Assembly: GCA_003614735.1 (NCBI GenBank)
Contig: KZ992462.1
Coordinates: forward strand, 1 to 52,479
Length of the DNA stretch: 52,479 bases
From: Thamnocephalis sphaerospora
Lineage: Eukaryota > Zoopagomycota > Zoopagomycetes > Zoopagales > Sigmoideomycetaceae
Reading direction: 5' to 3'
Shown: positions 734-33,858 of the stretch, piece by piece
Layout: each line of letters begins with the position of its first letter
Position numbering within the stretch: the stretch's first letter is position 1
Made by a program: the position numbers and the translations under genes
The notes under the pieces: model-generated
What the model saw: only the letters and a program-made list of their open reading frames with translations
Databases searched by the model: none
Told to the model about the DNA's origin: nothing

Positions 734-1967
734 CTAGGATAGCGTTGTCAGCACTTTGGACCATACGTGCCCTAGATAGGCAAGCGGCTTATCCTTGCCG
801 GCCAGCGCAAAAATGAGCGACGCATCCAGCTCGCTGACGGTGGGCCGCTTTTCGGCCCTGCAGGTCATGAGCGCATCTAAAAGCTGGAGTAGATGGGCAT
901 TTTTTACAGCCAGGATTGGCTTGAATCGGTTTTCGCCCAGCTCTACAATGCTCCTCATCTTGAAGACCATGTATTTTTCGAGCCACTTTGTGTACTTTTC
1001 GTCTGCAGGAGAATAGTAGTAGCCGTAGGGCGGTGCTCCGGTCAACGCGTCGTAAAGCGTTGCACCAAGCATCCACGAGTCGCGCTTGAGCAAATTTGTC
1101 CGGGTCTCTAGATAATCCTCCGGCGGCCGATAGCCAAATGTGCCAGCTACTGCCGGCTGCAGCTGCCCCTTGCTGCGCTGCGATTTCTCAAGGTTCATAA
1201 TGGTGATCTGGGGCATATCATTTGGCGTTGCTTGCCAAACCATAATGTCTATTGGCCACACGGTCGCTGTAAGTTAAAGGAGCAATGTCGTTGCAGTACT
1301 TGGCCACCTACTGTCCGGCTGTATGTCACCGTGCGCCAGGTTGAGGCGATGCATGTATTTGAGTGCTGCGTGTGTCGAGCTCACATGAATTGCCGTGCAA
1401 GGCAGCGGTGGCAGCATCTATTCCACAACGTACCTGTAATAGCTTGTGCAAAAATGTCCGGCAGCAGCGCGTCCTTTTGTTCTCGCGACAGTGCCCCTGC
1501 ATATACCCGCAGACTAACGCCACTAGGGCGCTTGAAGATCAAGCAGTATTGGCCATTGGCCGATGGAAAGCCGGCCAGCAGGGTTGCAAACAAAGTTTTG
1601 GCACTCTGTGGTATACCGTACCATCCTGGATCTTCATTACGGATAGTCTGTATGTAGAACTGTAGGTGAACGCGTGCTTTGGCATCGCCCCCAAGCCAAG
1701 TGTTATACGTACCATGAGTGCAGAGTGTTCGCGCTGTGCATTCTCCCGTGTAGCGCACTTGAGAAGGATGGGCTCTCCAAAGTATAGTGCAGGCACAGTA
1801 TGTGACTTTCCCTTGTTGGCGCGGGGCAGCTTCTCAACCGCCAGTCCCGGTATGCTTTGAATAGACTGCGCGTCAACTTCTGCCGGCTGTGGCGTTGGTA
1901 TGGCGTATGAGAATGGAGACAAACATAGTATAGCGGCGACCAGCGCGCCGACAACGAGAAGACGCAT
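734..1967 (-). CDS. Secreted kinase-like protein A (likely pseudokinase)
   Basis: The four exons are 1713-1967, 1434-1659, 1312-1365 and 734-1266, giving 355 aa. All three introns (53, 68 and 45 bp) keep frame. The start is MRLLVVGALVAAILCLSPFS, a clear signal peptide with likely cleavage after Ala22. A short kinase fold follows. The beta3 lysine is K70 (ILLKC), the catalytic-loop equivalent is H-G-D-I-Q-P-D-T at 172-179, a PPE replaces APE near 226, and DSWMLG near 241 matches the subdomain IX D-x-W-x-x-G. The DFG position reads N-L-E (N203), and the catalytic-loop Lys and Asn are changed to Gln and Thr, so metal binding and catalysis are doubtful even though the HxD aspartate remains. There is no glycine-rich loop and no membrane segment after the signal peptide. 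Exon structure and motifs match genes B and C at 28.8 and 32.6 kb. Function is unknown; an extracellular or ER-lumen role is inferred from the signal peptide. Confidence 0.82.
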
Positions 1968-2719
1968 TGCTGAATGAAATGAATGCTGAAGGTAGCGCGT
2001 GGTATGGAGTAACCGTGGTAGATAGGGCGTGCGACTGCGCCGTACAGCCGCCAGACAATATATGTTTGCTCTACCCTATCGTGCATGTGCTGGAACAGCT
2101 ATAGGAAAGCCACATCGTGCTCGCTGCATTTGGCGGCGATTCGCCTGACCAGCTTACTATCTGCATCACGTTTGCCTTGCCACGTGTGTGGACGATCTGT
2201 TTTCCAGAGTAGGATAATCTGCACGTCGATTGCGCCACTCGTACAAGCTTGCGTTATTGTATGTGCCAGCACTAGCAATGATGTAGTGGATGCACGTGCT
2301 AGTGCACAAGTATAGTCGCTTGTACACTCCAGCGCAGTCTTGCGCCACTTGAGCGATTGTAAAGCTGCTCAGTTGGGCGACTAGTATGATGTAGTGGTCT
2401 CCAGTGGCCATGTCGTGCTGCGCAGCTTGATGACTGTGGTCTAGACGATTTGGAAACTGGTGGCACTATGTTGCTGGACCTCTTGTGCACCACTGTTTAC
2501 CACTCTGCGCGCGACGTGTCTTTTCCTTACATTCGACTGCCATTCAACGTCGTACGCATCCGCATGGCGTCTCTTACCCGTAGCACTGCTGGAAGCGCTG
2601 GCACTGATCTGGCTGGTCGTGTGCATGGCTGTTTGCACGCTTGGCGCCAAAGACAGCGCCGTTCGCGCGCAGCCAACACCGGCTGGCTGCAGTTCTCCTA
2701 TGGTAGGTTGTAGGCCGTA
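1968..2719. other. Unassigned 750 bp upstream of kinase-like gene A
   Basis: The region lies between the start of gene A (minus strand) and the likely start of the next plus-strand gene. Several frames of 60-100 codons exist on both strands (for example 2450-2713 plus and 2441-2770 minus), but none shows a recognisable motif or a clean intron-linked continuation. It probably contains the promoter of gene A (a TATATT-like string on the minus strand near 2055) and perhaps unrecognised 5' exons of the downstream gene. Confidence 0.35.
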
Positions 2720-3916
2720 ATGGCTCGTGGCTTGGCTGGCACTGGAAAAGCTAAAGACCAGCCATTGCACCAGCTCTTCTGGCAGTTGTATCTGGACTGC
2801 GGTGAGACGTGCCGCTACGTGCCAGCTGGCGCTTCACAGTGACGAACGGCGCATGCTATGCAGCTGTGCGTTCTTGGTGGATCAAGTGGCTCTTTCTTCT
2901 CAAGCTTCGCAAACACTGATTGCCAAGCTCGCTGATGAGGTGAATAGGCTGCAGAGTGCCTGTAAATCCGGTCGACTGATGCCACGCTCTGCTGCGGCCA
3001 ACGTGCAGCTGATCGATGTCGACCGGCTGTGCGGTTTGATGCTTCGTGAGCAATTGTTATTCATCGTGTCTAGTAAGTGACAGACTAGAACGGGCGGATC
3101 AACGACGTGCTGCTAAACAGTGCAATTGCTGTTGTGCGCAGGAGATCGACTGCTCAGCAGGCTCGAGCAGTGCATTTCCGAGGCATTTGGCGACACCCTA
3201 CTGATTACGGCTGATGCAGAGCGCGGTCGACCAAGTATGGTTGGTGGTCTAGTCGGGCAATATGCGCAGTGATCGCGCGCGCGCTAATTTTTGTGAGCAG
3301 CTGGAGAGCACAGAGCGAGATGCATTTGTTACGCAGCTCGTCAAAGTAGCCACCAAGGTACAGAGTGCACTGTCGGCACCTGGCGTACACGGTGGCGTGC
3401 TGGACTGTTCCAGCTTTGTCGAGTGAGCGACCACAGCATACCGCAGACAAGCATATCATATGTCGCTCTAACATTTCAGCTGTTTGTACTGGCGCACTCG
3501 CGACATGCAGCGACGCAACTGTGGTGGCATTTACCGGCTGGCTTTTGGAATATCCGGTCGTCTATGTACACCCGCGCCCTACCGAAAGCAACTGTTTGGG
3601 ATTGGAAGAGCTGCTTCTTGTACGCGCACACGCCGTGTGCACACATGAACGCCACAAGTGGGTAGCCATAATGACCAGCATCTCATTTGATCGAGCCAAA
3701 TACTGATACCGAGCTAGCGCTAGCGAGCTGACCGAAGAGTCCATGTATCTACTGCAAAGCTTTAGTCTCCCGACGAGCGCTGTTGACAGCCAGCATACTG
3801 ACGTGCTTGTAAAAGCATGGCAAGCACGATGGGGACTGCGCTTTGCCCGGCAGCAGGTCTGGTCCAATCTACGCACCACAGTGCAACATGTGACGCTATC
3901 ATATGTTGTTCTATGA
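2720..3916 (+). CDS. Probable DUF4504/UPF0739 (C1orf74-like) protein
   Basis: Coding segments are strung across short introns. MARGLAGTGKAKDQPLHQLF... runs from 2720 and leads into LYLDCG. A long frame follows to the GTAAGT at about 3075. Then comes GDRLLSRLEQCISEAFGDT, then LESTERDAFVTQLVKVATK (about 3300-3357). Next is a block reading VVAFTGWLLEYPVVYVH and SNCLGLEELLLVRAHA (about 3520-3635). The last segment, SFSLPTSAVDSQHTDVLVKA followed by QVWSNLRTTVQHVTLSYVVL, ends in TGA near 3914. The block TGWLLxYPVVYVxxPxxxxNCL followed by a VPxS-like and W-x-x-R segment resembles DUF4504 proteins, whose function is unknown. The first intron does not keep frame in any splice I tried, so the N-terminus and several boundaries are provisional. 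Confidence 0.42.
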
Positions 3917-4095
3917 TGGATGCGCACTTCATTTACGATACTACGCAGCTCGTCAGTCCGAGGCGCAGTGCTATAGGGCCGGCGGCAGTGGCGTTATTCA
4001 TACACAATTGAAGATGGAGGCAAAAAGACTGCGCAACGACGCAAAGCAAATAGTCGGGCGTCGACAGGCCGACGGCGGCGCACACGCCCTGATCG

Positions 4096-5205
4096 CTACT
4101 GTCCCAGCTTCACACGCTTAGTAAACTGCATCGCCTGTACCGGCTGCAGCTCGGCCGCCTTGCCATGCCCCACCGGCGTCGTTGGGCCGCAGTTCTCCTT
4201 GTTCTGTGCCGACATCGCACATCATTAGCGACATAATAGTATGTACGTGCACCCATTCTGCTTGAATACGCACCTCCATGCGTGTGCGTATCTCGTCAAT
4301 CTCAGCCACCACACGAGCCAGCTCTTCCTTGACTCGGCGCAGCCGTTGCCGCTTCTCTTCAAGCGCCACCAGTGGCTGTGCGGCGTAAATGTGTCATTAG
4401 TGCTTGCAATATCGATGACATTGAGGCAGCAATAGCTTACATCCTCCGGCTTGGGCAGTACAATGGCACGCCACTCCTCCTCTGAGACCTCGTAGCTGTC
4501 GTGTACTTTGATTAGCGCATTGAAGCGGAGAATAACATTTGCTGCGTAGTGTACTCACAGTTCACGGTTTTGCTGAATTCGCCGCTTGATCTCTTCGCGT
4601 GACGGCTTGTCTGTAGTTGCGTCAGTCCCAGCATCACCACTAACGCGTGCCATCGCCACCTACTGCCGGTGTTCACAATGCAGTTGTTCTTCCGCTTAAT
4701 GCCTGGACCCTGCTTCTCGGCGTTAATGGCACCGATGATCATGGGGTCAAGATGAAGACCCGCAAACTCTGTAGCGCAGTCCCATGTATGTGGCAACGTG
4801 AACAACGGCTCAGAACTAGCGCAAACCTGCAGGTTGTGCCGTACAGCACAGTCACACGTACCCGCAGTGCTCTGCTGGCCGAGCAGGCGTTGCAGCTGAA
4901 GGTTCATTTGTGCAATAGTTTTGCCGGGCAAGCAGCCGGCCTCTACAATGCGCGCCCAGCTGCCAATGCCAAATTTCATGACCGCCTTTCGTAGCACCTC
5001 TGCTTCGTCCTGCGACCAGCCTGCACAGATCTCCATCATTAGCTGGCTTCCAACCAAAAGAATACCACAGAGCGGTACAAAGGCCAGACTGCTGCTGCTT
5101 ACCGGGAGAGTAGGTGCAATTCCACAGGGATGGCGAGTCGTTGGCGCGAATAACGTTGCGCTGCCCCGTGGGCATACTGCGCGGCTTCGGGGCGGAGAAG
5201 GCCAT
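4096..5205 (-). CDS. SANT/Myb-like domain protein
   Basis: Seven exons (5103-5205, 4862-5020, 4664-4768, 4559-4610, 4441-4495, 4274-4375, 4096-4203) splice in frame to 227 aa; introns are 53-93 bp. The N-terminus reads MAFSAPKPRSMPTGQRNV. A SANT/Myb-type helix bundle begins at about residue 35 (WSQDEAEVLRKAVMKFGIGS, with a second Trp in SWARIV), followed by GCLPGKTIAQMNLQLQRLLG. A conserved-looking central block (EFAGLHLDP, then GPGIKRKNNCIVNTG) leads into a charged helix and a predicted coiled coil (LEEKRQRLRRVKEELARVVA). Proteins of this type are nuclear and bind DNA or histone tails; the exact family role is unknown to me. The start is chosen because the upstream exon splices in phase onto the SANT helix. 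Confidence 0.8.
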
Positions 5206-5409
5206 GTTGACGCACAAAGGCACTGTGGCGCTGCGGCAAGTAGGTTGACGGCGGAGCTGGAGTGCAACCGCGAAACAAGGTAGATGGAACAGGCCAAACA
5301 GCCGCGCAAGCGATGAAGCGATGAAAGAGTGGAAGAAAAGCAAAGCACAGGAGTGGCGAACGCGTTTTCCTTGGAAACACGCGTCACCTTTGCCTGTCGC
5401 TAGCCAACA

Positions 5410-7158
5410 ATGGCGCTTTCACCGCGCACTAGTGTCGTCTTTGTGCCGCGCAATGCATACGGCACTAGCTACCATGGTCTAGTGCAGATTGGCGTAGGTA
5501 CACAGTAGCGCAGCAGTGTGGTCGTGCTAGGCTAACTTGGGCTGGCCAGCAAACGGAACATGTTGTGCGCGTAGATTTGGGTGGCACGCCAGAGCATCCG
5601 CAGTGGCGTGGTGCGCGCTTACTCGGTAGCAGTGCTTTAAGAGAGTTGCTGAGCAGCCAAATGGACATACTGCAGGCGGTAGGATGCGCGTTCATGTTAC
5701 CATCCGCCACTGACCAACCATCGCTGTCATCGCTATTGCAAAGAAACTGGAGCTGTGCGAATCCATTGAGGCATTTACCGCAGAACTGGAGGATGTGCTA
5801 GTAGGTCGTGTGCCGCTGCCATGCCGAGACATGCTGTATTGACCCGCAGTATTCAGGAGAAGCAGCAGCAGCAGAAAACGGTCGAGTCTAGCCAAAGCGC
5901 AGTCAGTCTGGATAAGACGCCGACAGTACATGCCAGCTTTTACGCTGGTCTGATGGACGAGCTAGATGCAGTCGGATGGGACTTTGTGTTTGAGCTAGAC
6001 GACCACAGTGTGGTGCTGTGCATAGAGTAAGCCGCACGTCAATGTCCATGCTCACCATGTCTCGAGGCTCATGGAACTTGCAGCGACAGCAGCGGTCAAA
6101 GGCATACAGTGCGAGCCATTATGTTCGCAGACTTTCCCGCTGCACCGCCACGCCTTGAAAATGACTATGGCGTAGCGCTACGTGTTGAGCGAGATGTCAA
6201 TGGCCGTTGGTTGACCGGTGCACTAAGGCATATGAATGAGGTAGTCAGAGCATGGTTATCGCTGTGGTATTGTAGCCTGGCTATAGCTGCTTGAGCTTTC
6301 TGTAGATTGTTGCTCGCTATCAGCATGTCTGGCAAGTGCTTCGGCATGTGGATGAAAGTCTGTGGGTACTGGACGCTGAGGCTACCGCGTCCTTGAGACT
6401 TAGCCGACGTATTGTACTGGGTAAGCCGACCTGTTGCGGGTATTCATGCACATGTTGCTTATCTACCGTTGCTACTCTAGCCAACCTTGTACTGCTAGAG
6501 CTGACATTTCATCCAGAGCGCCCGGAGACGTTGCCTTCCTGGCGGTTTCTTGGCTCGGAAGCAAATATTGCACCGCTGCGCAGTCGCTGGCATGCGAACC
6601 GTGCATTGTGGTAAGCTGAATTGACCAGCACCATGTTTGACCAGCGACACGCTGACATCTGGCCTGCATGTCCATCCAGGTCCACCAATGCCACGACGCG
6701 AGAAAATTTGGAGGTGCTGCTGGGGTTCCCACCGCCAACTCGTCCAACCGAGACATCAGAAAGCGGCGGCTTTGAATGCGGCATCTGTTACGCCTACTCG
6801 CTTGAGGACGAGTTGACTGTCGCTTCAGGAGAGGGAGAGCGTACATCTTTGGTGCCTGATGTGCTGTGCGCAAACCAGCACTGTGGTCGACCGTTTCACC
6901 GGCCGTGCTTGATCGATGTAGGTCATGCTCGCTTAGTACGTTGTGCTTGGCTAACTGTACTGTGGCGAACAATGTTACAGTGGTTTCGTGCCGATCCAAC
7001 TGCGCGACAAAGCTTGGGCGTGATATTTGGCCAGTGCCCCTACTGCGAACAGGTACGTATCTATCGCATACAAACCACACACGCCCAGTACTGACGTGCT
7101 TTCGATGATACAGAGCATTTCGGCCAGTACACTGGCGAGCAGGACACCACGCATGTAA
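5410..7158 (+). CDS. FANCL: FANCL-type E3 ubiquitin ligase
   Basis: Ten exons join in frame to 392 aa (5410-5493, 5550-5678, 5744-5800, 5857-6026, 6084-6240, 6324-6420, 6481-6610, 6680-6917, 6981-7052, 7114-7158), close to the 375 aa of human FANCL. The N-terminal ELF-like part reads VVFVPRNAYGTSYHGLVQIG. The central double-RWD (URD) region includes VGWDFVFELDD and RHTVRAIMFADFPAAPPR, then SLWVLD, SRRIVLG and LTFHPERPETLPSWRFLG, which follow the order of animal FANCL. The C-terminal RING has all eight zinc ligands: CGIC, LC, HC, FH, PC and QCPYC. FANCL monoubiquitinates FANCD2/FANCI with UBE2T during interstrand-crosslink repair in the nucleus. The exon-3 acceptor (CAAAG) is the weakest splice call. 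A poly-Gln tract (QQQQ) sits in exon 4. Confidence 0.9.
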
Positions 7159-7284
7159 GTTCACCCAAGTAAAGTGTACATCTATTCCTTCATCACAGGC
7201 ACGCGCGGCGTAAAGTGTATCGGACAGCTGGCACGTTGGCCGTGCGCCGACACGTGTTACTCCATGCAACTTGCTAGTGCTTAT

Positions 7285-15701: not shown

Positions 15702-18700
15702 CTAGGCGTCAATCATACGCACAGTGCCGACAAACGACTCGTCCATCATAGGACTGCGAATCGTGCTGCCAACCAGGGAGATGTACCGGTCAGCAGTGGC
15801 ATGGGCGAGAATGGAGCGTCTCGGATGGAAGGCCAATGCAGTGGGCGCTGCGGGGCGCTGTCCAAGAATGCCGCTGTATGTGCGTCCGTTGCCGATGCAT
15901 TTGCCCATGGTGTTCCAGACCTGAAGACCACCCGCCAAGGAACCGCTGCGATCCAGCAAGTGCACAAGAAGAGATGGTAAGCGCACGCTAGATCTACTTC
16001 ACTGGCGCACCGCCATCACCATACCTTGCCATGACAGCAACGTGGTCGTGCACGACAAACGACGACATCTCCTCGCGATCCGCGTCGATCGTAATGACCG
16101 AGTCCGACTGTCTTACATCCCATATCTTGATGTCGCCAGCCATACTGTGCGCAAATGGCGGTGTCAATACAGGCAGATGGCTAGGTATGCATGCATACGG
16201 GCGCGCTCACCTTGCCGACATCAGATCCTGCTGCCCGCCGCGCTGCAGATGGACGTCCAGTACCCATGCCGGATGCTCGTTCCAGGTGATGACCAGACTG
16301 GCAGAAACGGGTAAGCCCACGAAATGCCCACCGTCGTTGCTGAACGAGCGCCGCCTACCTTTCGCGGGGCGGATTTCGCCGGTCAAATACACGGATAACA
16401 CCGTCGCCACAGCCGGCAATGAATATGTTGCTGGACATTGGATCACTCGTCAGACTGGTGATACAGCTGTCTGAATGCGTCGGGATTTCCTGTAGTCCGC
16501 CAAAAGAGCATACTTTGCCGTTAGCAGCACAGCAATGCACGCATTCACAGCCACAGTAGGTCATACCTCGGCGCACACTTCGCGCGCTGCATCCCAAACG
16601 CGAACAATCCTGGAGTCACCGCTAATCAGCAGCGTGCCATGACTCTGTTGCCAGTCGGTAATCAAACCGCTGCCGCGATTGCTAGGCAGCATCTCAATAA
16701 GGGCACGCCAGCTCGTCACCAGCTCTGTCTTTTGCGGCGCATGGTAATCTCGGTAAATCCGAATCATGCCGTCGTCTATACGCAAAACGTCAGACGATGC
16801 GGCGCAAGTGTACGACGGCTCGACAGACGCCTACCAGAGCCGACCATCAGCAGCGGCAGGTCTTCTTCATTGAGCAGGTCTAGCGCAGTAATACGGCTTC
16901 CGATGCTATTATCATTCCATAGCTTGTTGAGCCGTGCGCCCTCCTCCCAGCTCCAGATGCTATCGTAGTTTGGATCGAGTGGACGTCATGGCGTTATTAG
17001 AGCACCTGCAGCATAGCAAACCCTGATTGTCCCGATGCTTACCTTACAGCGTTCTTGCCGTCACTGGTAACCAAGTGTGGCTCAAATGTGTGGAACCGCA
17101 TCAGCTGTACATCTGTATCCTCGTGCAGTGTACCCATTTGCATATCCCAGCGTGCTTCAGATGCGCCTTCTTGCATGGGAATCGTCTCGTAGAGCACTCG
17201 CTCATTGCGTGACCGACGCCAAAGGCGAGCGTTGTAGCTCTCGCTTCCAGGCTCATCTGCCTCGGCGGGCTACAAGCCATAAACGTAGACACGCATTAGT
17301 ATGTGGTCTGAACATGGCGGGGCCATATGTTGCTACCCACCTTGGTTTGCGGCTCGAGAAAGTAGGTGCAACACCAGGTGAAAAACTTGGACGCAACGGG
17401 CAAACGCTCCACAGGTCCCAGCTTCTCTTCTGCTGCAAAAGATCCGTGCCATTGAGACGGTCCGTGGCGTGCCCCGGCATAGGGCCGGCCATTGGCGGCC
17501 GACCAGGTACGCGCGTATCCCGAGCCGCGACGGCCGTCCAGGTCAGACATTGGACGTAGACGTCCGCTTATTTCACCATCGCGAAGCCAGTCTCCACCGT
17601 CGCTGCTTGTGGTGCCGTGATATACGCCAGCAACCCCGCCACCTACGGTCCGACTAGGCACTTGTGCGTTCGGCGTTGCCAAACCAGTGGTAAAGCCGTA
17701 CCCAATGTTGTACAGATTGCGCAGCGTCGAGATGGTGCCAGACGCCGAGCGACGCAGGGTGCTGGTAATGCGCTGAGCGGCAGGTGCAGCCATCGGTGAC
17801 AGTGGCGGTCCACCCCGTTCCATCATGGACGGCATGCCGGGCGCATCGGCCATGTGTGGCGATCCAGTGCTGGTCAGATGAAGCGAGCGCACCGACGTTG
17901 GCGTACTGGGCGCATCATGGTTGTAGAAACCCGAGGTAACCCTTGGTGAAAGCACCGACTCTTGCGCACTGACAAGCACGGCGTTGACCAGACCGCTGTC
18001 GTAAATCTGATCGTGTACATAGTCGACAATGCCGGAAGCCAACGCGGCTACGCTGGGGAAGGGATCCACCGAGAGGACAAGGAGCGTGCACCAGACACAG
18101 GCGTACATGGTATCGCCGGCGCCCTCGCCATCAAGCGCGCTCACTCCTGCGCCCACGGCCTCATGTCTGCTGACTGTTGGTGGGGCGTTCGGCGTGTCGG
18201 CCAGTGTAAGCGCATTAAACACCGTGGCCAACGACTCGGAGCCGGCGCGCGAGCTAGGTCGATCTCGCCGACGCCGGTTCTGGCGCCGCTCGTTGGCCAC
18301 CACCGCCGCCGCTGCCAGTTTCTGTCGATCGTGCTCAAGCAGTGCAGTAGCGGCCGCTGTGAACTGGCTGGCGTAGCGATGCACAACGATTGATAGCATG
18401 CAGACAAGCTCGCGACGCACCAGCGGACTGGCATCACCGGCTGCCGCAAGCGCACGCACGGCAATGTTGTGTTCCACGTTGATGACCTGCTCCATCAGGT
18501 CCAGATCGCCCAGAAGCGTTCCAAGTGCGTACAGCGCAGCCGCGCGCACCTCCGGCATCGGATCGCCCAGCAGCTCAAACAGGTGCTCGTGTGCGTTCTC
18601 GCGAATCGCCACCCACTTTGCATCCGCATAGCCGCGCCACAGCTCGCCGATGCACAGGCAGCACCATTGGCGCAGCAGCGGATCAGGGTCGCGTGCATGC

Positions 18701-20658
18701 GTAATACACATGCTCATCACGTTTGCCCTAAGGCACGCGCGCTGGCCAAGATCGGCGTGCCGGCAAAAGACAGAGATGACAAAGGCGCACATGGCGCGGT
18801 GCTCCGACAAGCTGGCCGACGTTTGCTGCGACTGCGCGGTCTGTGCCGACGACTGCGATGCGTGAGCGCCGCTGGGTGCCAGCACATTGAGAAAATAGAG
18901 ATAGCCATTGTCCTTGCTGAGATCCTGCGCACAGCTGTGGTCGACGGCAAGCATCCGCGCCCAGATAAATATCAGCACCGGACGCAACTCAACGGCCGGA
19001 CTCTGCAGCAGCTTGAGCACGTAGGGGAAAATGCCGACTGCGAGCGCGTGATGCACAGCCCAAGCACCCAGATCCAGGAAGCGACTAAGTAGAAGCAGTG
19101 CGCGCAGACGATGCACCTGGCTCAGCAGCACCTGCAACACGATCGGCAGCTGTTCTGGCGGACTTCGCGTCACAGATCCGTGCTGCAGCCACGTCTCAAA
19201 CGCCGTCAGCTGTTCTGCAAAAAAGGTGGACGGCCGATATGGCAGCGGCGTATCATTTTGCGTCGCTTTGAGAAGGGCTGGAATTTGCATTACGCACATG
19301 TCCACCGCCAGATCCCAGGCCTGCCACATGGGGTGCTGGTGGGTGGACGGCAACGCGGGACTGCTGACGGGCGTGCATTTGTAGCTGCGCATCACACGAT
19401 CGGCCAGCAGGAAATTGCGAAACAGCGCCGCCACCACCATATCCTGCCGAAATAGCCGTTTGAACAGCGGCTGCGGCAGCACGTTCCACGCAATGGTGTC
19501 GGTCACCGCGGTAAAAATCCAGTTGAGCTCGCCCAGCGGCGTGCGCCGGTCGTTCAGGCGGCCCGGCAGCTTCATCACATCCTCGGGCGAAATCGAGATA
19601 CCAAGAATCGGATTCTGCAGTACGAACCAGCGCAGCGCCACGGGAATAGGCGTGGTGAGACAGGCGGAGAATAGGTCGGCCGGCAGGTTTGGATTCATCG
19701 GCAGCACCTCGTTGGCCCCGCACGCTGCCAGCTGGATGCATTCCCGCATGGGCGCGTGCAACTCTGCCGGAGCGGGTGCATGCGCTGACTTTGGTGTCGA
19801 CGCTGCCGAGCCAGCTGCCGATGCTGGTTGGCTGTGCGGCGTGTGGTGGCCTGCCTGAGCGCGTCTACGCTCTGTTTCGGCGTCGCGCTGGGCGGCAAAG
19901 CGGTCAAACGCCGCGACAATGTTTCCTGCCGCCGAGCAATCGTACACGTAGATACACGGTGAGCCTAGCCAAGTCTGCAGGTCGTAGAGCGAGACTGGAA
20001 TGTACTGGGTGTAGGACCGATTGAACACCCAGATTTCACCACTAGCGGTGGGCTTTGGCACGCCGTGGCCGTTGTAGTGAAAGAGAATGCGGTCTTCGCG
20101 CGTGCCACGCCTCAGCGCCGTACACAGCCGTTTCGCCTCTTCGACCGCCGGATCCAGCAGGAGCTTGTATCGTGCGCGTGGCTGCCACACCTCATACTGC
20201 TGCTGAAGTGCACGTGCAATCGCATCCAACGATTTTTGCACTGGCATCGCAAACGGATCCATCCAGCATTCAAGGCGAGCACACGGGCTGGTCTTGACCA
20301 CGTCGGGCGGATCGACGCCGATGTTGAGGCAAAGCGTAAGTAGCACAGAGACCGTCTTGACGCGTTCACGCATGCGCCAGTCGGGAAGAGACGGGTACTG
20401 CGCCTTCTGGTCGGCCTTGTCCTTTGAGCCAGCGGCTGCCACTGCCGCCGCCGCATGGACGCCAACGCCGTTGTCATCGGACGCCGCTGCTCCTCCGCCT
20501 GCGCCTTGCTCCAGCGCGCGGCTTGACGTCACGCGCGCCGGATCGCCCTGGCTCTCATGGCGCCTTTCGGCAAAGTACAGATAGTAGTAACCCTCCAGCG
20601 GCTGGCCGACCACCTCGGCCGGAGCAGCCGCCTGCTGCGCGTTTTGCATGTCAAGCAT
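15702..20658 (-). CDS. KOG1: Raptor/Kog1, TORC1 subunit
   Basis: The first exon (17341-20658) alone encodes 1106 aa. The Raptor N-terminal conserved, caspase-like domain shows LEGYYYLYFAERRHE, MRERVKTVSVLLTLCLNIGV, ILFHYNGHGVPKPTASGEIW and YVYDCSAAGNIV. A HEAT/armadillo region follows (ILIFIWARMLAVDHS, ALYALGTLLGD). A long Ser/Gly/Arg-rich linker then leads to several short exons carrying the C-terminal WD40 propeller: QLMRFHTFEPHLVTSDGKN, RIVRVWDAAREVCAEV, GDGVIRVFDRRNPP and LAFHPRRSILAHATAD. The stop is at 15702-15704. Kog1 presents substrates to TOR kinase at the vacuole. The upstream start (20658) and an internal Met three codons later are both possible. The gene is divergent from Fox2 across 641 bp. 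Confidence 0.95.
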
Positions 20659-20860: not shown

Positions 20861-20892
20861 GACGGGTATGAGAGAGACAGGCTGCGTGCAGG

Positions 20893-21299: not shown

Positions 21300-24111
21300 A
21301 TGGCCGATCTGCGCTTTGACAACCGCGTTGTTCTGGTGACTGGCGCTGGTGGCGGTAAGTCCGTCGGCACTTCGCCCGCCGCAGCAAAGTAGCCCGTTAC
21401 TAACCAGCGCTGCTCGGCACACATTGTCGCTAGGTCTGGGCCGTGCCTATGCGCTGTTCTTCGCTGCTCGCGGTGCCTCGGTGGTCGTCAACGACCTGGG
21501 CACCATCAAGACCGAGAACGGCGCCTCTGTCCGCGCGGCTGACCGCGTTGTTGAGGAAATCGTGCGCGCCGGCGGCAAGGCTGTGGCCAACTACGACTCG
21601 GTCAACGATGGCGATCGCATCGTCAAGCAGACCGTCGACACCTTTGGTCGCATCGATGTGATCATCAACAACGCCGGCATTCTGCGCGACAAGTCTCTCT
21701 CGCGCATGACCGACGCCGACTGGGACCTTGTCCAGGAGGTGCACGTGCGTGGCTCGTACAAGGTCACCAAGGCTGCCTGGGACCAGCTTCGCAAGCAAAA
21801 GTTTGGCCGCATCATCATGACCGCGTCCGCCGCCGGCATCTACGGCAACTTTGGCCAGTCCAACTACAGCGCCGCCAAGCTGGCGCTCGCCAGTCTGAGC
21901 AGCACGCTGGCGCGCGAGGGTGCAAAGTACAACATCCACTGCAACTGCATCGCTCCGGTGGCCGCTTCCCGCATGACCGAGACGATTCTTCCGCCAGAGA
22001 TTCTCAAGGCCCTCAAGCCCGAGTATGTCGCCGGCCTGGTCGGCTACCTGACTCACGAGTCGACCGAAGAGAACGGCGGCCTGTTCGAGGTGGGCGCTGG
22101 CTACGTGGGCAAGCTCCGCTGGGAGCGCAGCGAGGGTGTTGTCTTCAAGGCCGACAAGACCTTTACGCCTGGTGCGGTTGGCGCCAAGTGGGCCGACATC
22201 AACGACTTTTCGCGTCCCGTCTACCCGGAGAACATCACCGATACCGACTGGGTCGGTCTGCTCGAGCGCGCCAAGGAGCTGCCGGGCAACCCCAAGGGCG
22301 CCGACCTGCGCTTTGACGGCCAGGTGGCCATTGTCACCGGTGCTGGTGGCGGTCTGGGCCGTGCGTACGCTCTTCTGCTCGGATCGCTCGGCGCCTCGGT
22401 GGTGGTGAACGACCTTGGCGGCAGTGCCGTCGGCAGCGGCAGCGACAAGCGCGCTGCTGACGTTGTCGTCGACGAGATTGTCCGTGCCGGCGGCAAGGCT
22501 GTGGCCAACTACGACTCGGTCGAGGAGGGCGAGAAGGTGGTGGAGACGGCCATCAAGGCGTTCGGCCGCGTGGACATTCTCGTCAACAACGCCGGTATCC
22601 TGCGCGATAAGTCCTTTGTCCGCATGACCGACGCCGACTGGGATCTGGTGCAGCGCGTCCATCTGCGCGGCACCTACAAGGTCACCAAGGCTGCCTGGCC
22701 GTATCTGGTCAAGCAAAAGTACGGCCGCATTGTCAACACCGCGTCGGCGGTCGGTCTGTACGGCAACTTTGGCCAGGCCAACTACAGCGCCGCCAAGCTC
22801 GGCATCCTGGGCCTGACCAACACGATTGCGCTTGAAGGCCGCAAGTACAACATCATCGCCAACACCATCGCGCCCAACGCCGGTACGCGCATGACCGCCA
22901 CGATCATGCCGCCCGAGATGGTGGAGGCGCTCAAGCCGGACTATGTTGCTCCGCTGGTTGCCTTCCTGGCGCACAACGAGTGCCCCGACAGCGGCAAGGT
23001 GTTTGAGGTCGGCAGCGGCTGGATTGCCAACGTGCGCCGTCAGCGCAGCGGTGGTGTCGGCTTCCCGATCGACCGGCCGCTGGCGCCGGAAAGCATTGCT
23101 GCCAAGTGGGCGCAGGTCATCGACTTTGAGGATGGCCGCGCCACGTATCCGACCTCGGCTCAGGAGTCGCTGCAGAGCATCTACGGCAACTACCTTGCTC
23201 AGCAGGAGGCTGGCGGTGAAGAGGATGAGGTAAACAAGACCGCACGCAGCCTCGAGATTCCGCCGCAGGTGCACGAGTACACTGAGCGCGACTCGATCCT
23301 GTACGCGCTGGGTGCCGGCTGCACGCGCAAGGACCTGCAGTTTGTCTACGAAAACTCGTCCGACTTTTCGGTGCTGCCGACCTACGGTGTGGTGCCGGGT
23401 CTGGCTGCCGCCACCGTCACGCCCTACAGCGACTTTTTGCCGTCGTTCAACCCGATGATGCTGCTGCACGGCGAGCAGTACCTTGAGATCCGCCGTCCGC
23501 TGCCCACTTCTGGCAAGCTGACGCAGCACGCGCGCGTACTCGACGTGCTCGACAAGGGCAAGGCTGCCGCTGTCACGGTCGGCATCACTAGCAAGGACGA
23601 GCAGGGCCGCGACGTGCTCTACGGCGAAGGCACCATGTTCATCCGCGGCTCGGGCGGCTTTGGCGGCCCCAAGAAGCGGAGCAACCCGATTCCGGCTGCG
23701 GTTGCGACCAACACGCCGCCCAAGCGCCAGCCGGACGCTGTCATCAAGGAGAAGACCAGCGAGGACCAGGCGGCGCTCTACCGCCTCAGCGGCGACCTGA
23801 ACCCGCTCCACATTGATCCGAGCATGAGCTCGATTGGTGGCTTTGACGTGCCGATCCTCCACGGCCTGTGCACCTTTGCCATCTCCGGCAAGCACGTCCT
23901 CAAGGCATTCTGCAACAACGACACCTCCAAGTTCAAGAGCATCAAGGCCCGCTTTGCCAAGCACGTATTTCCGGGCGAGACCCTGGAGACCAGCATGTGG
24001 CGCGAGGGTAACAAGGTGATCTTCCAGACCCGTGTGCTGGAGCGCGACACGCTTGCCATCACCAACGCTGCAGTGGAGATTGCGGCCGATGCGGCCAAGG
24101 CCAAGCTGTAA
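21300..24111 (+). CDS. FOX2: Peroxisomal multifunctional beta-oxidation enzyme (MFE-2)
   Basis: Two exons (21300-21354 and 21434-24111, intron 79 bp) encode 910 aa, typical for Fox2. Two tandem short-chain dehydrogenase domains each show TGAGGGLGRAYA and NNAGILRDKS, and each has a YSAAK active site (about residues 7-250 and 315-560). The C-terminal hot-dog enoyl-CoA hydratase 2 domain carries the catalytic pattern SGDLNPLHIDP. The protein ends AKAKL; AKL is a good PTS1 peroxisomal signal. The enzyme hydrates trans-2-enoyl-CoA and oxidises (3R)-hydroxyacyl-CoA in peroxisomes. There is no SCP2 domain, as usual in fungi. Codon use is strongly biased to C-ending codons, unlike neighbouring genes, which suggests high expression. 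The bias also creates a long open antisense frame. Confidence 0.97.
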
Positions 24112-24711
24112 GCCGCGGCTGTCTGCTCTCCTTCTTTCTACCCGCAGTGCATATCTGCACTGGGACCTGCACCATTTCGTATTGCACGCGCCCACCTGTT
24201 CATCTTTCCATCTGCTGCTACTGGAGCCCAACGTGCTCCAATAAACGTCCATACGCTAGTTGTTTTCGGGTCCAATGCAGCGGTCGCACATTACTGGTTG
24301 CTGTGTGCATGCTAAAGGGTGCGTCACAGGATTCGACCTGCGGCTGCGGCTGCGGCTGCTGCTGCTGTTGCTGCTACTGCTGCTACTGCCGTCGCTGCCG
24401 TCGCTGCCGTCGCTGCTGCTGCGTGACCATGGCGCATGGGTGGCGGAGACTCATTCTCGTCACTATCGCCGCTGCTCAGCACATTTGTCAGGTACTTGAC
24501 AGTGACGGCACAGCAGCCGCTTCCAGCCAGCGGTGTACCCTTTCCTCTCCTTCTCTCCCTCTCCTTGTTCACCTTGGCCTCCGTTGCCAGCTCTCCTGAG
24601 CCCACGCAATCTCACCAGACACGCGCCTGCCTCTTTCCGCCTGTGCGCCCAATACCACGCTCCAGTTGTACTTGATAGGCGCGCTATAGCGCTGCAGCAT
24701 TGCATCAACCT
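24112..24711. other. Intergenic with CTG/CCG repeat
   Basis: This holds the 3' UTR of Fox2 (an AATAAA at about 24240) and the upstream region of the WD40 gene. A trinucleotide-rich tract occupies 24337-24423. Small frames crossing the tract encode only poly-Leu, poly-Cys or poly-Ala and are not credible genes. Confidence 0.5.
24337..24423. repeat. Imperfect (CTG)n/(CGG)n trinucleotide repeat
   Basis: CTGCGG, CTGCTG, CTACTG and CCGTCG units follow each other for about 87 bp between Fox2 and the WD40 gene. Confidence 0.9.
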
Positions 24712-28544: not shown

Positions 28545-28825
28545 CACGCGCACACTACTTTACCTCGGTTTCCGCTGTCGCACATATGTTGTAGCCGTGA
28601 TGGCAGCGACCAGGACTATTGTCCAGGCCAGACATTAACCTTATTAAACGCGCCACTGCCATCCACATGGATATCTTTGCACGGACCCTCCATACTGGCG
28701 TTTTCACGCCATACTAGCTTGTTACCAAGGCAAAGAGTTATGCAACATCCAGCACCAGATGAAGGAGTGTTTACTGCGTGATACGACGGTATACCACATT
28801 GAATATGGTTAGCGTGCAAAGCCTG
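28545..28825. other. Convergent intergenic gap
   Basis: About 280 bp lie between the stops of the WD40 gene and kinase-like gene B. No features were seen. Confidence 0.4.
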
Positions 28826-30054
28826 TCAGTTAGGCGTATCCTTGGGCGGCATTTTTGTCTTTAGCTTGTCACGCATGTTTTCGAGGAACGGCCTTTTTGT
28901 CGGCGCACCCCCCAGCATAATCCTTATCTTCCGCAAATCGCTATATTCCAATACTTTGAGTCGATCCTCGGTTTTGCCAGCTAGGAATTCCTTGATCACA
29001 TCGAGCAAAGCCTGATTCTTTGTCTGGATGGGTGAGTATGAGTTTCGGCCGTGCACCGCTGCCTCATTCATCGCATTCTGCAAGTCCTTTGTAGGAACCG
29101 GAAGGAGCACAGGATGATTTTTCGAGTAGGTGTAGCCGTAGGGTGGCATACCGTTTGTCGCAAAGTAGAGCGTTGCGCCGAGCATCCATGCATCGCGCTC
29201 GTACGGATGCACTCTCAGTGCTGCGTATTCCTCTGGTGGAATGTAACCGTACATACCACGCTTTGGCGGTGTGTTTCTGTCTATTGGTTCAAAGCCTGTG
29301 AAGGTAACCTTGAAATCGAGCGATCCATCTCTAGATTTGACAAAAATGTCTACAACAAAGACGAATGCATTGTAAGATACGATGAAATGCCACGCAACTA
29401 TGATAGGCGAGGCTTACTGTCTGGATTGATGTTTCCGTGGGTGATGCCCTCCTGATGCATGTGCTTGACTCCTGTATAATTCAGCGCAATAACACTTAGC
29501 ATACGCGCTGCATATAAATAGTATGGCGCAAGCATACATACCGTCCACTATTGGCATAGCAAGTCTTGCCAACAAGGCTTCGCTCTTCTCATTCTTCAAA
29601 GACAGGATATATTTGCGTAGCGTTATTCCGTCAGTTGCTTCCAGAACCATGCAGTAGTAGCCATCCCCCGTGGAAAACGTATGCAGAACACGTGGGACAA
29701 ACACATCTCCCAATGGCTCAAACCTGCGACCGAGAGTCTGTTTGCCAGGTCAGCACACGCACTCACGTCATGTGATAGCGCTACGCCTACTTCAAGTGCT
29801 TTGACCTCGCCGTTGTGTCGACTCAGCTGCGGGGTGCACTTAAGGAGGCCTTGGTTGCCGTTGTACTTGACAGTAACAGTGCGTAGCCCGTCTTCTCTCT
29901 CGGAATACTTTCCCACAGTCTCGACGTCGTTCTGATTTGGCCAATTGTTTAAAGCGGACCCGGCAGTCTGCGCTAGTGCGGTCGGTGTCAGATGGCTGCC
30001 CAGTAGCACGACAGCTGCCATGGATAGCAGTATAGTGGCGGAAAGAAGGCGCAT
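28826..30054 (-). CDS. Secreted pseudokinase B
   Basis: The four exons are 29791-30054, 29542-29737, 29418-29471 and 28826-29349, giving 345 aa; introns are 53, 70 and 68 bp. The signal peptide MRLLSATILLSMAAVVLLGS is likely cleaved after ALA28. Kinase-fold landmarks are K72 (GLLKC) and a catalytic loop H-G-N-I-N-P-D-N at 165-172, in which the catalytic Asp is Asn167. The DFG position reads T-G-F at 189-191. GYIPPEEY stands at the APE position, and RDAWMLG matches subdomain IX. Both catalytic aspartates are gone, so phosphotransfer is unlikely. The alternative 29 nt first intron (donor GTGAGT) was rejected because it is too short. The chosen donor gives a 53 bp intron in the same phase as in genes A and C. 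It is close to gene C in sequence, even in introns. Confidence 0.85.
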
Positions 30055-30817
30055 GGTGGACGGGTGTTGTATGTGGTAAGCGTTGGTTGTAGCGTTATTC
30101 GTATCGGCGTAATGCGGCTTAAGACTGAGCAATAGTGCGTTTCTAGGGCGCGGTGTGCATGATTCTCTGCTGCTGCGGTGAGCACTCGCGCCAGTTTATG
30201 TATTGCGGAAAGTCGGTATGCGGAGCATGGTAGAGCGGTGTATGTAGCGGGTTCTCATGGCACTCATACGCGGTAAACCGCTATGGAAAGCCGTTTAAAG
30301 CCAATCGTAACTGGCCCAAGAGGTGCACCAATAAGCGCCCTACTACAGACGTTTATTCGTTGAGGAGTGCAAACAGCCCGTTCAAGTCAAACATATCCTT
30401 GCCAAAATGGGAAGGCTACGCGTGTTTGCTGCTGGCACTTGTTATAAATGCTTCAAAACGGGCGCTATGCTATGTGCAAACGGGGGGCGGTTTAAGCTGC
30501 GATAAGCTGTCATCTTTAAGGAGTCATCGCAGCAGGGTAAACGCCGGCTACTTTAGCGAATGTTTATTGAGCAATTGCGTCCAATCGACCATTTCAAAAA
30601 AGAAAAGTGATGGTGGCATGTCTTCCGGATAGTATTTGTGTTTTTCCTACATACCTAGCTGCGCTTCTTTACCATGAAATGAAAAGAGCGCTAAAAGGCT
30701 TGCCTGTGTATGATGCGCCAATCTGGGCTGTACCAAGTGCACGCTATATTTGTGTGGTAGTCGGATTTAGCTCAAACAGCTCTATGCCGGTGTAGCAGCC
30801 GGCGCCACGCGAGGCCG
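30055..30817. other. Long intergenic gap, AT-richer
   Basis: This lies between pseudokinase B and the oxygenase gene. It has a few open frames (for example 30360-30632) but no recognisable motif, start context or intron linkage. It probably contains the pseudokinase B promoter and the oxygenase 3' UTR. Confidence 0.4.
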
Positions 30818-32088
30818 CTACACATGAGATGTAGCAGGGTCTGATAGCACCATGGCTTTTGAATTAATGTACGCGCGTTCCTGTTCCAAGTGTATATCAC
30901 CGTAAAGCGCAAGTGTGTGCTTGGTTGAATCCTCGCCAACAGCAGCAAGCTCCGGCAGCGGGTCAAGAGGCGCATCAAAGGGTGGAGCGATAAATGTCGC
31001 CACGCTAATGCGCGGCTTTTCAGAGCAATGAACCACACGGTGCTGCACATCAATATATCGGCCGGCGGTCAATCGCTGAAGATAATGCAGCATGTGAGAA
31101 GCACGTCTAGCAACAGCTGAACAGCTCAGCACTTACATTGAACGCCGTCCCAACATTGACGACAAATGCACCGGGGATGGGCGGCACATCGTGCCATTTG
31201 CCACCACAATCTTGAATCTGAAGAGATACAGAGTCAGAATCCTATGTATAATCTGTATTAGCTATGTGCATGTATTTCACACTATTGCGGTCATACCTGA
31301 TTCAGAAACGTCAGGCAGCTTAATACGCAGTGTCGACAGAGGTAAGCTAGCTGGCTGTGTCAGCATATTAACCGTTACTAACCCGGCATCCGCGTGTGCA
31401 GCCAAATTGATTCCTCCTTGCTCTATCTCGGCTTGGGTAAGCGCATTGTATCCGTTGAAGCCTATGTGTGCCACCGCTTTCTGTAGCTGATTGCGCGATA
31501 CATCAGCTAGACCCAGGCTGTCTGCAATAGAGTCAAACACACGCTCGTTAAGCTGCAGGATATGATCCGTGTACTCCTTTGTCAATGCGCGGAACTCTTT
31601 GCTTGGCCACGAGTCTTGCTCGCCAAGTGCATCAGGGACTGTCGGCAGTCTAGCACTTGGTGAGGCTGGATCAGCATCAGGCAAAAGTCCGTTGTGATAG
31701 CAATTGACAGGTGGATGAAATGAGAGCGTCTCAATTTGAACCTTATCTGTTTGCAGTACGCCGCTGCTAGACCAGTAGCCGCGAGCAAGGCTGCCAACCT
31801 TGTGTTTGTGCTTTTCTTCCATAGAAAGCTGAAAAAAGCTGCGACCAAGGGTGCGTATTTTATCGCAAAGTTCCTGAGGCACTTCATGGTTCACGAGATA
31901 AAATGTGCTGAAGTGACGTGACAGAAGTTAGTGCCATTGTCACTTGAATCGCGGTCAATAAGCGACACCTACCCGTACTGGCTACAGGCCTTGTCAACTG
32001 CGCATGCTACTGTTTGCCGTTGTTCAGAGCTGGAATCGGAGCTTAGGTATGCCCCAATGTCGATGACAGGCAGTGAATAAACAGCCAT
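30818..32088 (-). CDS. 2-oxoglutarate/Fe(II) oxygenase, IPNS-like
   Basis: Exon 1 reads MAVYSLPVIDIGAYL. An intron joins SQYG to TFYLVNHEVPQELCDKIR, the usual DIOX_N motif. The second exon includes LARGYWSSSGVLQTDK, LSFHPP and HIGFNGYNA, then LAAHADAGLVTVNML, whose H-x-D binds iron. After another intron come DCGGKWHDVPPIPGAFVVNV and GRYIDVQHRVVH (distal His), with PRISVATFIAPP giving the R-x-S that binds 2-oxoglutarate. The total is about 340 aa, ending SDPATSHV. Such enzymes hydroxylate or oxidise small molecules; related fungal ones act in specialised metabolism, but no substrate can be named. The splice at the 3' end of exon 2 (about 31300) is uncertain. It lies between pseudokinases B and C, all three on the minus strand. 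Confidence 0.88.
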
Positions 32089-32637
32089 GATGCCGATTTG
32101 GTGATGACAGAAGCAGTAGAGTGCAAGGCGATATCCCAGCTAGGTGTAAGCAGATAGCTTGCAGCAGAAAAAGAATAATGGATATGTATCAAGAGCAGCT
32201 AGCGTATGGTGTGCCGGAAAAGTAGCGATGACGGCGATCTGCTGCAGTTGCTTGCTTAAATGGAAAGAGTGCAGATGCGTAATGATACCGACATAGCGGC
32301 TAACGATGCTGACGTGGCGGCTGACGTTGCCGCTCACGATCACCGTGGAGATGACGCGTACATGATGTATGCCCACCATTCACCAGTATGTATGCATGCC
32401 GTGCTTCAACCAGCTACTACGCCGCAACACAAAAACTTTCTATGCGTTTACCTTTTGTCCAGTGTTTTCCTTGGTTCCCCCACGGTTATGCGGTAGTCTC
32501 AGAGAACGCTAAAATTACCACACTAACCACCCAAATAAATAAGGATGGCATCACATGGTGCGCTGTATTTGGGTTGAATATGTTTACTATGTGCTGTGCT
32601 CGCGCGCCAGGCCCCAGCACTTTTGCTTGCAAACTCG
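32089..32637. other. Intergenic upstream of the oxygenase
   Basis: About 550 bp with no supported gene. It contains the oxygenase promoter and the 3' flank of pseudokinase C. A GACATxGCGGCTxACG-like unit is repeated loosely at 32289-32340. Confidence 0.4.
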
Positions 32638-33858
32638 TTAGCTAATGGTCTTTTTGATAATCATTACAGCTCTTAGCTTGTTCATGGCACTCTTAAAGGG
32701 CGTCTTTGCCAGTGGCATAACGCCCATAGCAATTTTTAGGATTTGGTCATCGTCAATCTGCGATACCTCAAGCCGGTCCTCGACCTTGCAGCTCAGCAGC
32801 TGCTTTACCACGTCGACCAAGGCCTGGTTCTTTGCCTTGATGGGTGAAAACGAACTTTGACCGGTCACCGCTTCCTCCTTCATCGTGCGCTCCAAGTCCT
32901 CGACAGGAACTGGAATAAGCATGTGTTGCTTTTTCGAGTAGGTGTAGCCGTAGGGTGGCATGCCGTTTGCCACAAAGTACAGCGTTGCGCCGAGCATCCA
33001 TGCATCGCGCTTGTACGGATGCACGCCCAATGCTGCGTATTCCTCTGGTGGAATGTAACCGTACATGCCATGGCCCCGCTGTGTGTTCGCTGGCTCAATA
33101 CCCGTGAAGACAAGCTTAACGCTGCCCCATTCGCTTCCAGGCTTGACAATAATGTCTGCAACAAAGACGAGTGCATTGTGAGATGCGATGAAAGACCGCG
33201 CCGCCATAGTGAGCGATACTTACTATCCGGATTGATGTTTCCGTAAACGATACCCTCTTGGTGCATAAACTTGACACCTGTGCAATTCAACATAGCATCC
33301 GTCAGTTCACGACGCACACTAGCTGCATCGTCTGGTGACGCGTACCCAGTATTGTCTGAGTGGCAAGGTATTCCAGAAAAGGTCCATTGTCTTCATCCTT
33401 CAGGAAAGGAATAAATTCACGTAGCGTCGGGCCGTAGACCGACTCCAGAACCATACAGTGGTCACCTTCTTTTGTGGAAAACACGCCCAGCACACGCGGG
33501 ACAAGCACATCTCCCAATGGCTCAAACTTGCGACCAAGCGTCTGTTTATCCGGTCAGCACACGCACTCACGTCATACGATAGCGTTGTACCTACTTCAAG
33601 CATTTTAACCTCGTCGTTGCGCCGCATCAAGTGTTTGGTGCACTTGAGGAGGCCTCGGCCGTTATTGTACTTGACGGCGGCAGTGCGTAGCCCATCTTCC
33701 CTGTCTGGATACCATTCTTCAATTTCAAGGCCACTCCGACTTGGCCAGCTGCTTGGGGTGGGTCCAGCAATCTGCGCTAGTGCGGCCGGTGTCAGATGGC
33801 TGCTCATTAGCACGACAGCTGCCATGGAAAGTAGCACACTGGCGGAGAGGAGACGCAT
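32638..33858 (-). CDS. Secreted pseudokinase C
   Basis: Exons 33595-33858, 33346-33541, 33224-33277 and 32638-33155 encode 343 aa. The first three exons are exactly the same lengths as in gene B (264, 196 and 54 bp), and introns are 53, 68 and 68 bp. The signal peptide MRLLSASVLLSMAAVVLMSS ends at ALA28. The beta3 Lys is K72. The catalytic loop is Y-G-N-I-N-P-D-N: HRD has become YGN, so both the His and the Asp are lost. The DFG position is T-G-I. GYIPPEEY and RDAWMLG are kept. The C-terminal lobe ends with a basic stretch (NKLRAVMIIKKTIS). Gene C is the closest relative of gene B, and together they flank the oxygenase gene. An extracellular scaffold or effector role is inferred only from the signal peptide and the dead active site. 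Confidence 0.85.

What the first reader, a model, noticed from the sequence alone, without database searches (positions are those of the whole stretch)
734..33858. A family of three secreted kinase-like proteins with decayed active sites
Genes at 734-1967, 28826-30054 and 32638-33858 (all minus strand) each encode a signal peptide followed directly by a 290-330 aa kinase-like fold with no membrane segment. They keep the beta3 Lys, the PPE (APE) and the DxWMLG motif but lose the DFG aspartate. Secreted kinase-fold proteins are rare in fungi, and a multi-copy family points to an extracellular job such as host or prey contact, cell-wall signalling or scaffolding. I know of no described family with this layout; whether it is truly new must be tested by search.
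Basis: partly seen in the sequence, partly recalled or inferred. Interest (0 to 1): 0.88.

Follow-up and report, generated by a model that had tools for sequence, protein, structure and literature searches.

The report
Secreted kinase-like gene family in mycoparasite
A fungus that lives by parasitising other fungi carries more than fifty genes for kinase-shaped proteins that look built for secretion, most of those examined having lost parts needed to be enzymes, which suggests that a fungus independently evolved something like the secreted kinase arsenal known from Toxoplasma.

Summary
The window is contig C39 of a 14.46-Mb assembly; public names assign its proteins to Thamnocephalis sphaerospora (Zoopagales), an obligate mycoparasite. 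K1-K3 are four-exon genes with kinase-like domains. The AlphaFold model of K2 is a kinase (pTM 0.71; best PDB match the STK40 kinase homology domain). The same assembly holds 54 loci of this family by my hand count. I modelled 44. All 44 have a Cys right after the beta3 Lys position and a Cys in beta5, against none of 56 generic kinases, so a family-specific disulfide is likely. Three intron positions recur in 40, 41 and 44 of 44. Of 41 models with a start Met, 37 pass a signal-peptide heuristic. Nine of 44, plus annotated P0012, keep all four catalytic residues. The tree needs three label changes; K1 lost its site apart from K2/K3. Omega of 0.23-0.52 in the closest pairs argues against pseudogenes. 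A 13-gene subclade carries a PPxY-type motif after its signal. Word-limited protein searches found no family members outside this species; ten paper searches listed no description. Most likely these are secreted kinase/pseudokinase effectors, resembling Toxoplasma ROP kinases by convergence. Secretion, host targeting and activity are untested.

The parts
734..1967 (-). K1 gene, 345 aa; exons 1967-1713, 1647-1434, 1365-1312, 1248-734
   Evidence: Spliced model (intron 1 acceptor placed by comparison with other members); annotated counterpart P0002 has another first exon and another intron 1 acceptor but the same later exons
1902..1967 (-). K1 signal-peptide-like segment MRLLVVGALVAAILCLSPFSYA
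   Evidence: heuristic only, SignalP not run
1755..1766 (-). K1 LLKC: beta3 Lys and family Cys 1
1534..1551 (-). K1 beta5 QYCLIF: family Cys 2
1247..1333 (-). K1 catalytic loop HGDIQPDN (split by intron 1311-1249): catalytic Asp and Asn kept
1187..1195 (-). K1 NLE in place of DFG
28826..30054 (-). K2 gene, 345 aa; exons 30054-29791, 29737-29542, 29471-29418, 29349-28826
   Evidence: identical to public protein P0001; AlphaFold kinase fold
29971..30054 (-). K2 signal-peptide-like segment
   Evidence: heuristic only
29836..29847 (-). K2 LLKC: beta3 Lys and family Cys 1
29642..29659 (-). K2 beta5 YYCMVL: family Cys 2
29348..29439 (-). K2 HGNINPDN (split by intron 29417-29350): catalytic Asp replaced by Asn
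29288..29296 (-). K2 GFE in place of DFG
32638..33858 (-). K3 gene, 343 aa; exons 33858-33595, 33541-33346, 33277-33224, 33155-32638
   Evidence: no protein corresponding to K3 was seen among the hits
33775..33858 (-). K3 signal-peptide-like segment
   Evidence: heuristic only
33640..33651 (-). K3 LLKC: beta3 Lys and family Cys 1
33446..33463 (-). K3 beta5 DHCMVL: family Cys 2
33154..33245 (-). K3 YGNINPDN (split by intron 33223-33156)
33094..33102 (-). K3 GIE in place of DFG

Best explanation
K1-K3 belong to a large family of secretory-type kinase-fold proteins (54 loci by hand count) in the mycoparasite Thamnocephalis sphaerospora. SHOWN by sequence: a common origin; a protein-kinase domain; a hydrophobic signal-peptide-like start in the models that reach their start codon; two invariant cysteines; a minority of members with an intact catalytic quartet at the base of the tree; loss of catalysis in at least three places if intact is ancestral; and purifying selection. 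INFERRED: the proteins are exported through the secretory pathway. The two cysteines lie in adjacent N-lobe strands (beta3 and beta5) and form a disulfide that stabilises the N-lobe outside the cytosol. The intact members phosphorylate targets at the parasite-host interface. The many inactive members, including K1-K3, act as binders, decoys or allosteric partners of host proteins or of the active paralogs, as ROP5 does for ROP18 in Toxoplasma. For the 13-gene subclade with a PPxY-type motif I infer a WW-domain partner, which would place those proteins in a cytosol after delivery.
Against: There are no expression, secretion or localisation data. SignalP was not available, and my signal test picks the most hydrophobic Met at or upstream of the aligned start. 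Four of 41 fail the stricter test, and the public models P0002 and P0008 lack the full segment. The N-glycosylation sequon count is somewhat below chance (61 against 80.8 expected over 41 models). No window of the 12 subclade genes examined has omega above 1, so there is no direct sign of an arms race. Host targeting rests on lifestyle and analogy only. The disulfide is not seen in a structure. Three of 41 models have a second hydrophobic stretch above 1.6.
Confidence: 0.55

Rival explanations
1. Secreted, but serving the fungus itself: wall-associated scaffolds, adhesins, or self/non-self recognition proteins in its own wall or spore surface, with no host target.
For: Signal-peptide-like starts, and Ser- or Pro-rich linkers in a number of members; purifying selection without a detected omega above 1.
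Against: A second membrane-like stretch was seen in only 3 of 41 models; GPI signals were not tested. An expansion to 54 loci with repeated loss of catalysis is easier to explain by diverse partners (inference). The PPxY motif has no obvious wall role (inference).
Confidence: 0.22
2. Secretory-pathway residents: lumenal kinases and pseudokinase partners that modify the fungus's own secreted proteins, as Fam20C/Fam20A do in animals.
For: Signal-like starts, a likely disulfide, and a mix of active-looking and inactive paralogs; Fam20A is a secreted pseudokinase that activates Fam20C (PMC7948968, passages).
Against: None of the 44 models ends in an HDEL/KDEL-type retrieval signal. A housekeeping role does not call for dozens of paralogs in one species (inference). 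No Fam20 or VLK Pfam family was listed at E up to 1 for the 10 members scanned.
Confidence: 0.15
3. Decaying or redundant copies with no function left (pseudogenes or assembly duplicates).
For: Two of 44 models carry an internal stop (C312, C182a), which may be real or due to my splice model. Two contig pairs carry apparent duplicate copies (C425/C500 and C89/C428). C111 and C54 could not be modelled cleanly.
Against: 42 of 44 models are stop-free, three intron sites are kept in 40, 41 and 44 of 44, and omega is 0.23-0.52 in the 22 closest pairs.
Confidence: 0.03
4. The sequence comes from the host fungus in the dual culture, not from the mycoparasite.
For: The sample was a dual culture with Cokeromyces recurvatus.
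Against: Public names assign the proteins to T. sphaerospora, and family members lie on dozens of contigs of one assembly with the same short-intron gene structure.
Confidence: 0.04

Closest known systems
Toxoplasma rhoptry kinases (ROPK; ROP18 active, ROP5 and others pseudokinase)
   Same: A parasite-specific expanded family of secreted kinases and pseudokinases, with clustered copies and loss of catalysis in most members (PMC3635977, passages). K2, P0010 and P0008 pass the cut-off of Pfam PF14531 'Kinase-like'; that this model was built on ROP proteins is recalled.
   Different: Fungus, not apicomplexan; fungi have no rhoptries (recalled). The sequence match is weak (K2 25.9, P0010 25.6, P0008 32.2 against a cut-off of 25; K1 11.1 and K3 21.3 fail), so convergence is more likely than membership.
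Toxoplasma WNG kinases (WNG1/ROP35, BPK1)
   Same: Secreted kinase plus pseudokinase family; an acidic residue in the third DFG position (34 of 44 here; a Glu needed for activity in WNG1, PMC6442604, passages).
   Different: WNG kinases lack the Gly-loop and beta1 strand; the P0010 model has both beta1 and beta2 strands.
Fam20A/Fam20C and VLK secretory-pathway kinases of animals
   Same: Kinase folds in the secretory pathway, disulfides in Fam20A and Fam20B; Fam20A is a secreted pseudokinase (PMC7948968, passages).
   Different: No Pfam hit to these families for 10 members scanned; far higher copy number.
Fungal FunK1 kinases (Pfam PF17667)
   Same: Fungal kinase family; P0010 matches 77 of 387 model positions at 30.8 bits, above the cut-off of 24.1.
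   Different: The match covers only the stretch up to the catalytic loop and DFG; K1 scores 11.4 and K2/K3 are not listed. That FunK1 proteins are not secreted is recalled.

Membership tests
Protein kinase superfamily (PF00069) | Significant match to the protein-kinase profile | tested here: met
   K1-K3 49.5-61.1 bits, cut-off 31.7; 7 of 7 further members tested 34.0-104.8 bits
Protein kinase superfamily (PF00069) | Bilobed kinase fold | tested here: met
Active protein kinase | beta3 Lys, catalytic-loop Asp and Asn, DFG Asp all present | tested here: not met
   K1 lacks the DFG Asp; K2 and K3 lack both Asp. For the family: met in 9 of 44 models and in P0012
Secreted protein | Cleavable signal peptide, no membrane anchor | tested here: inconclusive
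   Heuristic only: 37 of 41 models pass, 3 of 56 generic kinases pass; SignalP and experiments not available
ROP kinases (ROPK) | Match to PF14531 kinase-like family (link to ROP proteins recalled) | tested here: inconclusive
   K2 25.9, P0010 25.6, P0008 32.2 bits pass 25.0; the other 7 of 10 scanned do not, among them K1 11.1 and K3 21.3
ROP kinases (ROPK) | Rhoptry origin and injection into the host | not testable with these tools
   Fungi lack rhoptries (recalled)
WNG kinases | No Gly-loop/beta1 strand | tested here: not met
   Strands 34-40 and 47-54, read as beta1 and beta2, present in the P0010 model; the K2 model has strands 44-46 and 58-64 there
FunK1 (PF17667) | Match over the whole FunK1 model | tested here: not met
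   Only 77 of 387 positions in P0010; below cut-off in K1 and P0012; not listed for the other 7 of 10
Fam20/VLK secretory kinases | Match to their Pfam families | tested here: not met
   No such family listed at E up to 1 for the 10 members scanned

The most novel reading that the evidence does not exclude
A fungus has independently evolved a Toxoplasma-like arsenal of secreted kinases and pseudokinases, with a disulfide built into the N-lobe, that is delivered into the cells of a fungal host. One subclade uses a PPxY tail to engage host WW-domain proteins, such as Rsp5-type ubiquitin ligases. To my knowledge these would be the first kinase-fold effectors in fungus-on-fungus parasitism.
Probability: 0.25. 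Interest if true: 0.92.

Novelty: new variant of a known kind. Interest (0 to 1): 0.76.

Why it matters
How obligate mycoparasites control a host so similar to themselves is an open question; PMC6784888 (passage) reports no orthologous genes that signal mycoparasitism across all its taxa. A family of more than fifty loci for secretory-type kinase-fold proteins is a concrete candidate toolkit. It also gives a natural series from intact to degraded active sites with at least three apparent losses, useful for studying how kinases become pseudokinases. The invariant cysteine pair, if it forms a disulfide, would show how a kinase N-lobe adapts to life outside the cytosol. If the intact members work outside cells, extracellular or host-directed phosphorylation would extend to fungi.

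Tried and rejected
Rejected readings: (1) 'A family of three': rejected. (2) 'All inactive': rejected. (3) Membership in FunK1, WNG or Fam20: see Membership tests. No FunK1, Fam20, VLK or ROP chain is among the 50 rows shown, which excludes nothing. (4) Positive selection: windowed omega peaked at 0.67 (alphaC-beta4 region) and about 0.6 near the C-terminus, never above 1 (12 of the 13 subclade genes). (5) First-exon introns of 69-90 bp that my aligner called in five subclade members were rejected because they are in frame, open, and encode the Ser-rich linker; in C500, C167 and C61 that stretch contains the PPxY motif. The tree, omega and residue counts used the models before this correction; the PPxY count used the corrected linkers. 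(6) A viral-library fold search gave, in the rows that carry a name, ordinary viral kinases.

Limits: the count of 54 loci was made by hand from the match tables. I left out canonical-kinase matches and two doubtful ones (C102, C148) and counted C425/C500 and C89/C428 once each. Of the 54, 44 went into the model alignment. C54 and C111 were modelled but dropped (partial or unclean). C182b is taken to be public protein P0012 from its contig length. Seven were not fetched (C562, C161, C153, C421b, C284, C574, C452). P0008 lies on a 4,637-base contig and was not matched to any of the 54. The control set of 56 kinases is P0003-P0006 plus P0013-P0064, hits of my own searches, so it is biased to intact kinases. 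C58's model skips part of the alphaE region. The protein searches scored only the 8,000 candidates sharing most words or had 9 candidates, so absence elsewhere, including other Zoopagales, is not shown. Of the papers listed by the ten searches I opened only five (PMC6784888, PMC6442604, PMC7948968, PMC3635977, PMC10386755), and saw passages of each plus one section of the first. Models of K1-K3 used other intron 1 splice sites and were corrected; searches used those early versions, and searches used an early K1.
Full report
IDENTITY. The window is contig C39 (52,479 bases) of a 14.46-Mb, 594-contig assembly. Public names give two of its proteins as 'kinase-like domain-containing protein [Thamnocephalis sphaerospora]', a Zoopagales fungus. 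PMC6784888 counts it among obligate mycoparasites and grew it in dual culture with Cokeromyces recurvatus (section 18, read).

THE THREE GENES. K1, K2 and K3 splice into four exons each (345, 345 and 343 aa). K2 is identical to the public protein P0001. K1's public model P0002 uses a different first exon and lacks the signal-like start. I prefer the in-frame start because it aligns with K2, K3 and the sister gene C357. All three hit PF00069 above cut-off (done on the earlier splice versions). DFG is NLE, GFE and GIE; the catalytic loop is HGD (K1), HGN (K2) and YGN (K3).

FAMILY SIZE. Searching the assembly with K3 and K1 gave 98 matches each at E up to 0.01, many of them separate exons of one gene and some of them canonical kinases. 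Merged by hand they give 54 family loci, five of them close together on C150. I wrote a spliced profile aligner and obtained 44 models used in the alignment. Independent checks: my C545 model equals public P0010 letter for letter, and the final K2 equals P0001. Three introns sit at the same alignment positions (within two columns) in 40, 41 and 44 of 44 models. The public proteins P0002, P0007, P0009 and P0011 differ from my models at some splice sites or starts.

SECRETION. Three of the 44 models (C67, C435, C422) are cut by an edge before the start Met. The other 41 all have a hydrophobic nine-residue core of mean hydropathy at least 2.0; 13 of 53 generic kinases do. With an AxA-like site added, 37 of 41 pass, against 3 of 56 generic kinases tested from any Met in the first 60 residues. 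My Met choice favours hydrophobic starts. The public models P0001, P0007, P0009, P0010, P0011 and P0012 begin with such a segment; P0002 and P0008 do not, or only in part. None of 44 ends in a KDEL-type signal. Sequons are 61 against 80.8 expected in 41 models, which does not support heavy glycosylation.

TWO CYSTEINES. The residue after the beta3 Lys position and a residue at the start of beta5 are Cys in 44 of 44 models. Of 56 generic kinases none has Cys at either place; 5 of the 56 have a gap at the second. Among the catalytic quartet no residue reaches 44 of 44. Fourteen of 44 models have only two Cys after residue 28, hence only this pair. In the K2 model C73 lies in strand 67-74 and C117 in strand 116-121. 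That these strands are neighbours in kinases and that these two positions face each other is recalled, so the disulfide is an inference.

CATALYTIC SPECTRUM. The beta3 Lys is kept in 36 of 44, the catalytic-loop Asp in 13, the Asn in 27, the DFG Asp in 16; all four in 9; both Asp are missing in 25. P0012 adds a tenth member with all four and a true DFG. Of the nine, eight read HGD with DFD, and C126 reads HND with DFG. The third DFG position is acidic in 34 of 44. In Toxoplasma WNG1 an acidic residue there is needed for activity, and in the RNaseL pseudokinase a DFD motif binds Mg (PMC6442604, passages), so 'DFD' does not rule out activity.

HISTORY. In a tree of 46 family members and four other kinases, the family is one side of a 99/99 branch. 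Intact members form a basal grade, and the loss label needs three changes (shuffled mean 12.3; starred branches alone force two). K1 and C357 group with the intact C126 (98/95), apart from the 32-member inactive clade (98/87) that holds K2 and K3. Some inner branches are weak, and two of the long outgroup branches meet, so the root is not firm. Nei-Gojobori omega for the 22 closest pairs is 0.23-0.52. In 12 of the 13 subclade genes overall omega is 0.35, highest 0.67 in the alphaC-beta4 region and about 0.6 near the C-terminus, nowhere above 1.

A SHORT MOTIF. In a 13-gene subclade (not K1-K3) the Ser-rich linker after the signal carries P-x-Y-[DE] in 13 of 13 and PPxY in 10 of 13; shuffled linkers give a mean of 0.23 genes and at most 3 in 5,000. 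Five of these linkers depend on my dropping a called intron. The genes are related, so the shuffle overstates significance. PPxY as a WW-domain ligand is recalled knowledge.

OUTSIDE THE SPECIES. Three protein searches returned high-scoring, family-level hits from T. sphaerospora only. With the intact-class profile, scores fall from 298 bits (P0012) to 71 bits for an ordinary animal kinase. The search is word-limited and I could not confirm that other Zoopagales are in the database. Ten paper searches listed no paper whose title or abstract start describes such a family; the listed papers were mostly not opened. In the main text of PMC6784888 'kinase' occurs twice, both metabolic. I saw passages and section 18 of that paper, not the whole, and no supplements.

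MECHANISM. Secretory-type kinase-fold proteins with a probably stabilised N-lobe, a few perhaps active and most reduced to binding, multiplied in an obligate parasite: the closest parallel I know is the ROP kinase set of Toxoplasma, where most members are predicted pseudokinases in gene clusters and ROP5 controls ROP18 (PMC3635977, passages). I judge identity as a kinase-fold family near certain, a secretory route likely, and a host-directed role about even.

Noticed in passing
window 41919-43010 (+): An ORF of an ordinary protein kinase (PF00069, 133.6 bits), starting inside the kinase profile; its true N-terminus was not worked out. It scores far below K1-K3 against the family profile (97).
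   Followed up: partly
window 17296-20658 (-): A 1120-aa ORF with Raptor N-terminal caspase-like domain and HEAT repeats, so probably the TORC1 subunit Raptor/Kog1.
   Followed up: partly
window 21349-24111 (+) and 21430-24252 (-): Two very long overlapping ORFs on opposite strands (920 and 940 aa); the minus-strand one has no Pfam hit at E up to 0.001, the plus-strand one was not scanned.
   Followed up: no
window 47838-48728 (+) and 4512-5387 (-): ORFs with a partial glutamine synthetase catalytic domain and a Myb-like domain.
   Followed up: no
L021/L022 (C500/C425) and L036/L083 (C89/C428): Family genes with the same model on two contigs each: probably haplotypes or assembly duplicates; C89's copy is cut by the contig end.
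   Followed up: partly
L053 (C195b), upstream of the kinase domain: A long Pro-rich linker after the signal with a direct repeat (NEFSDDNVPLINQIAGR twice) before a kinase domain with all four catalytic residues.
   Followed up: no
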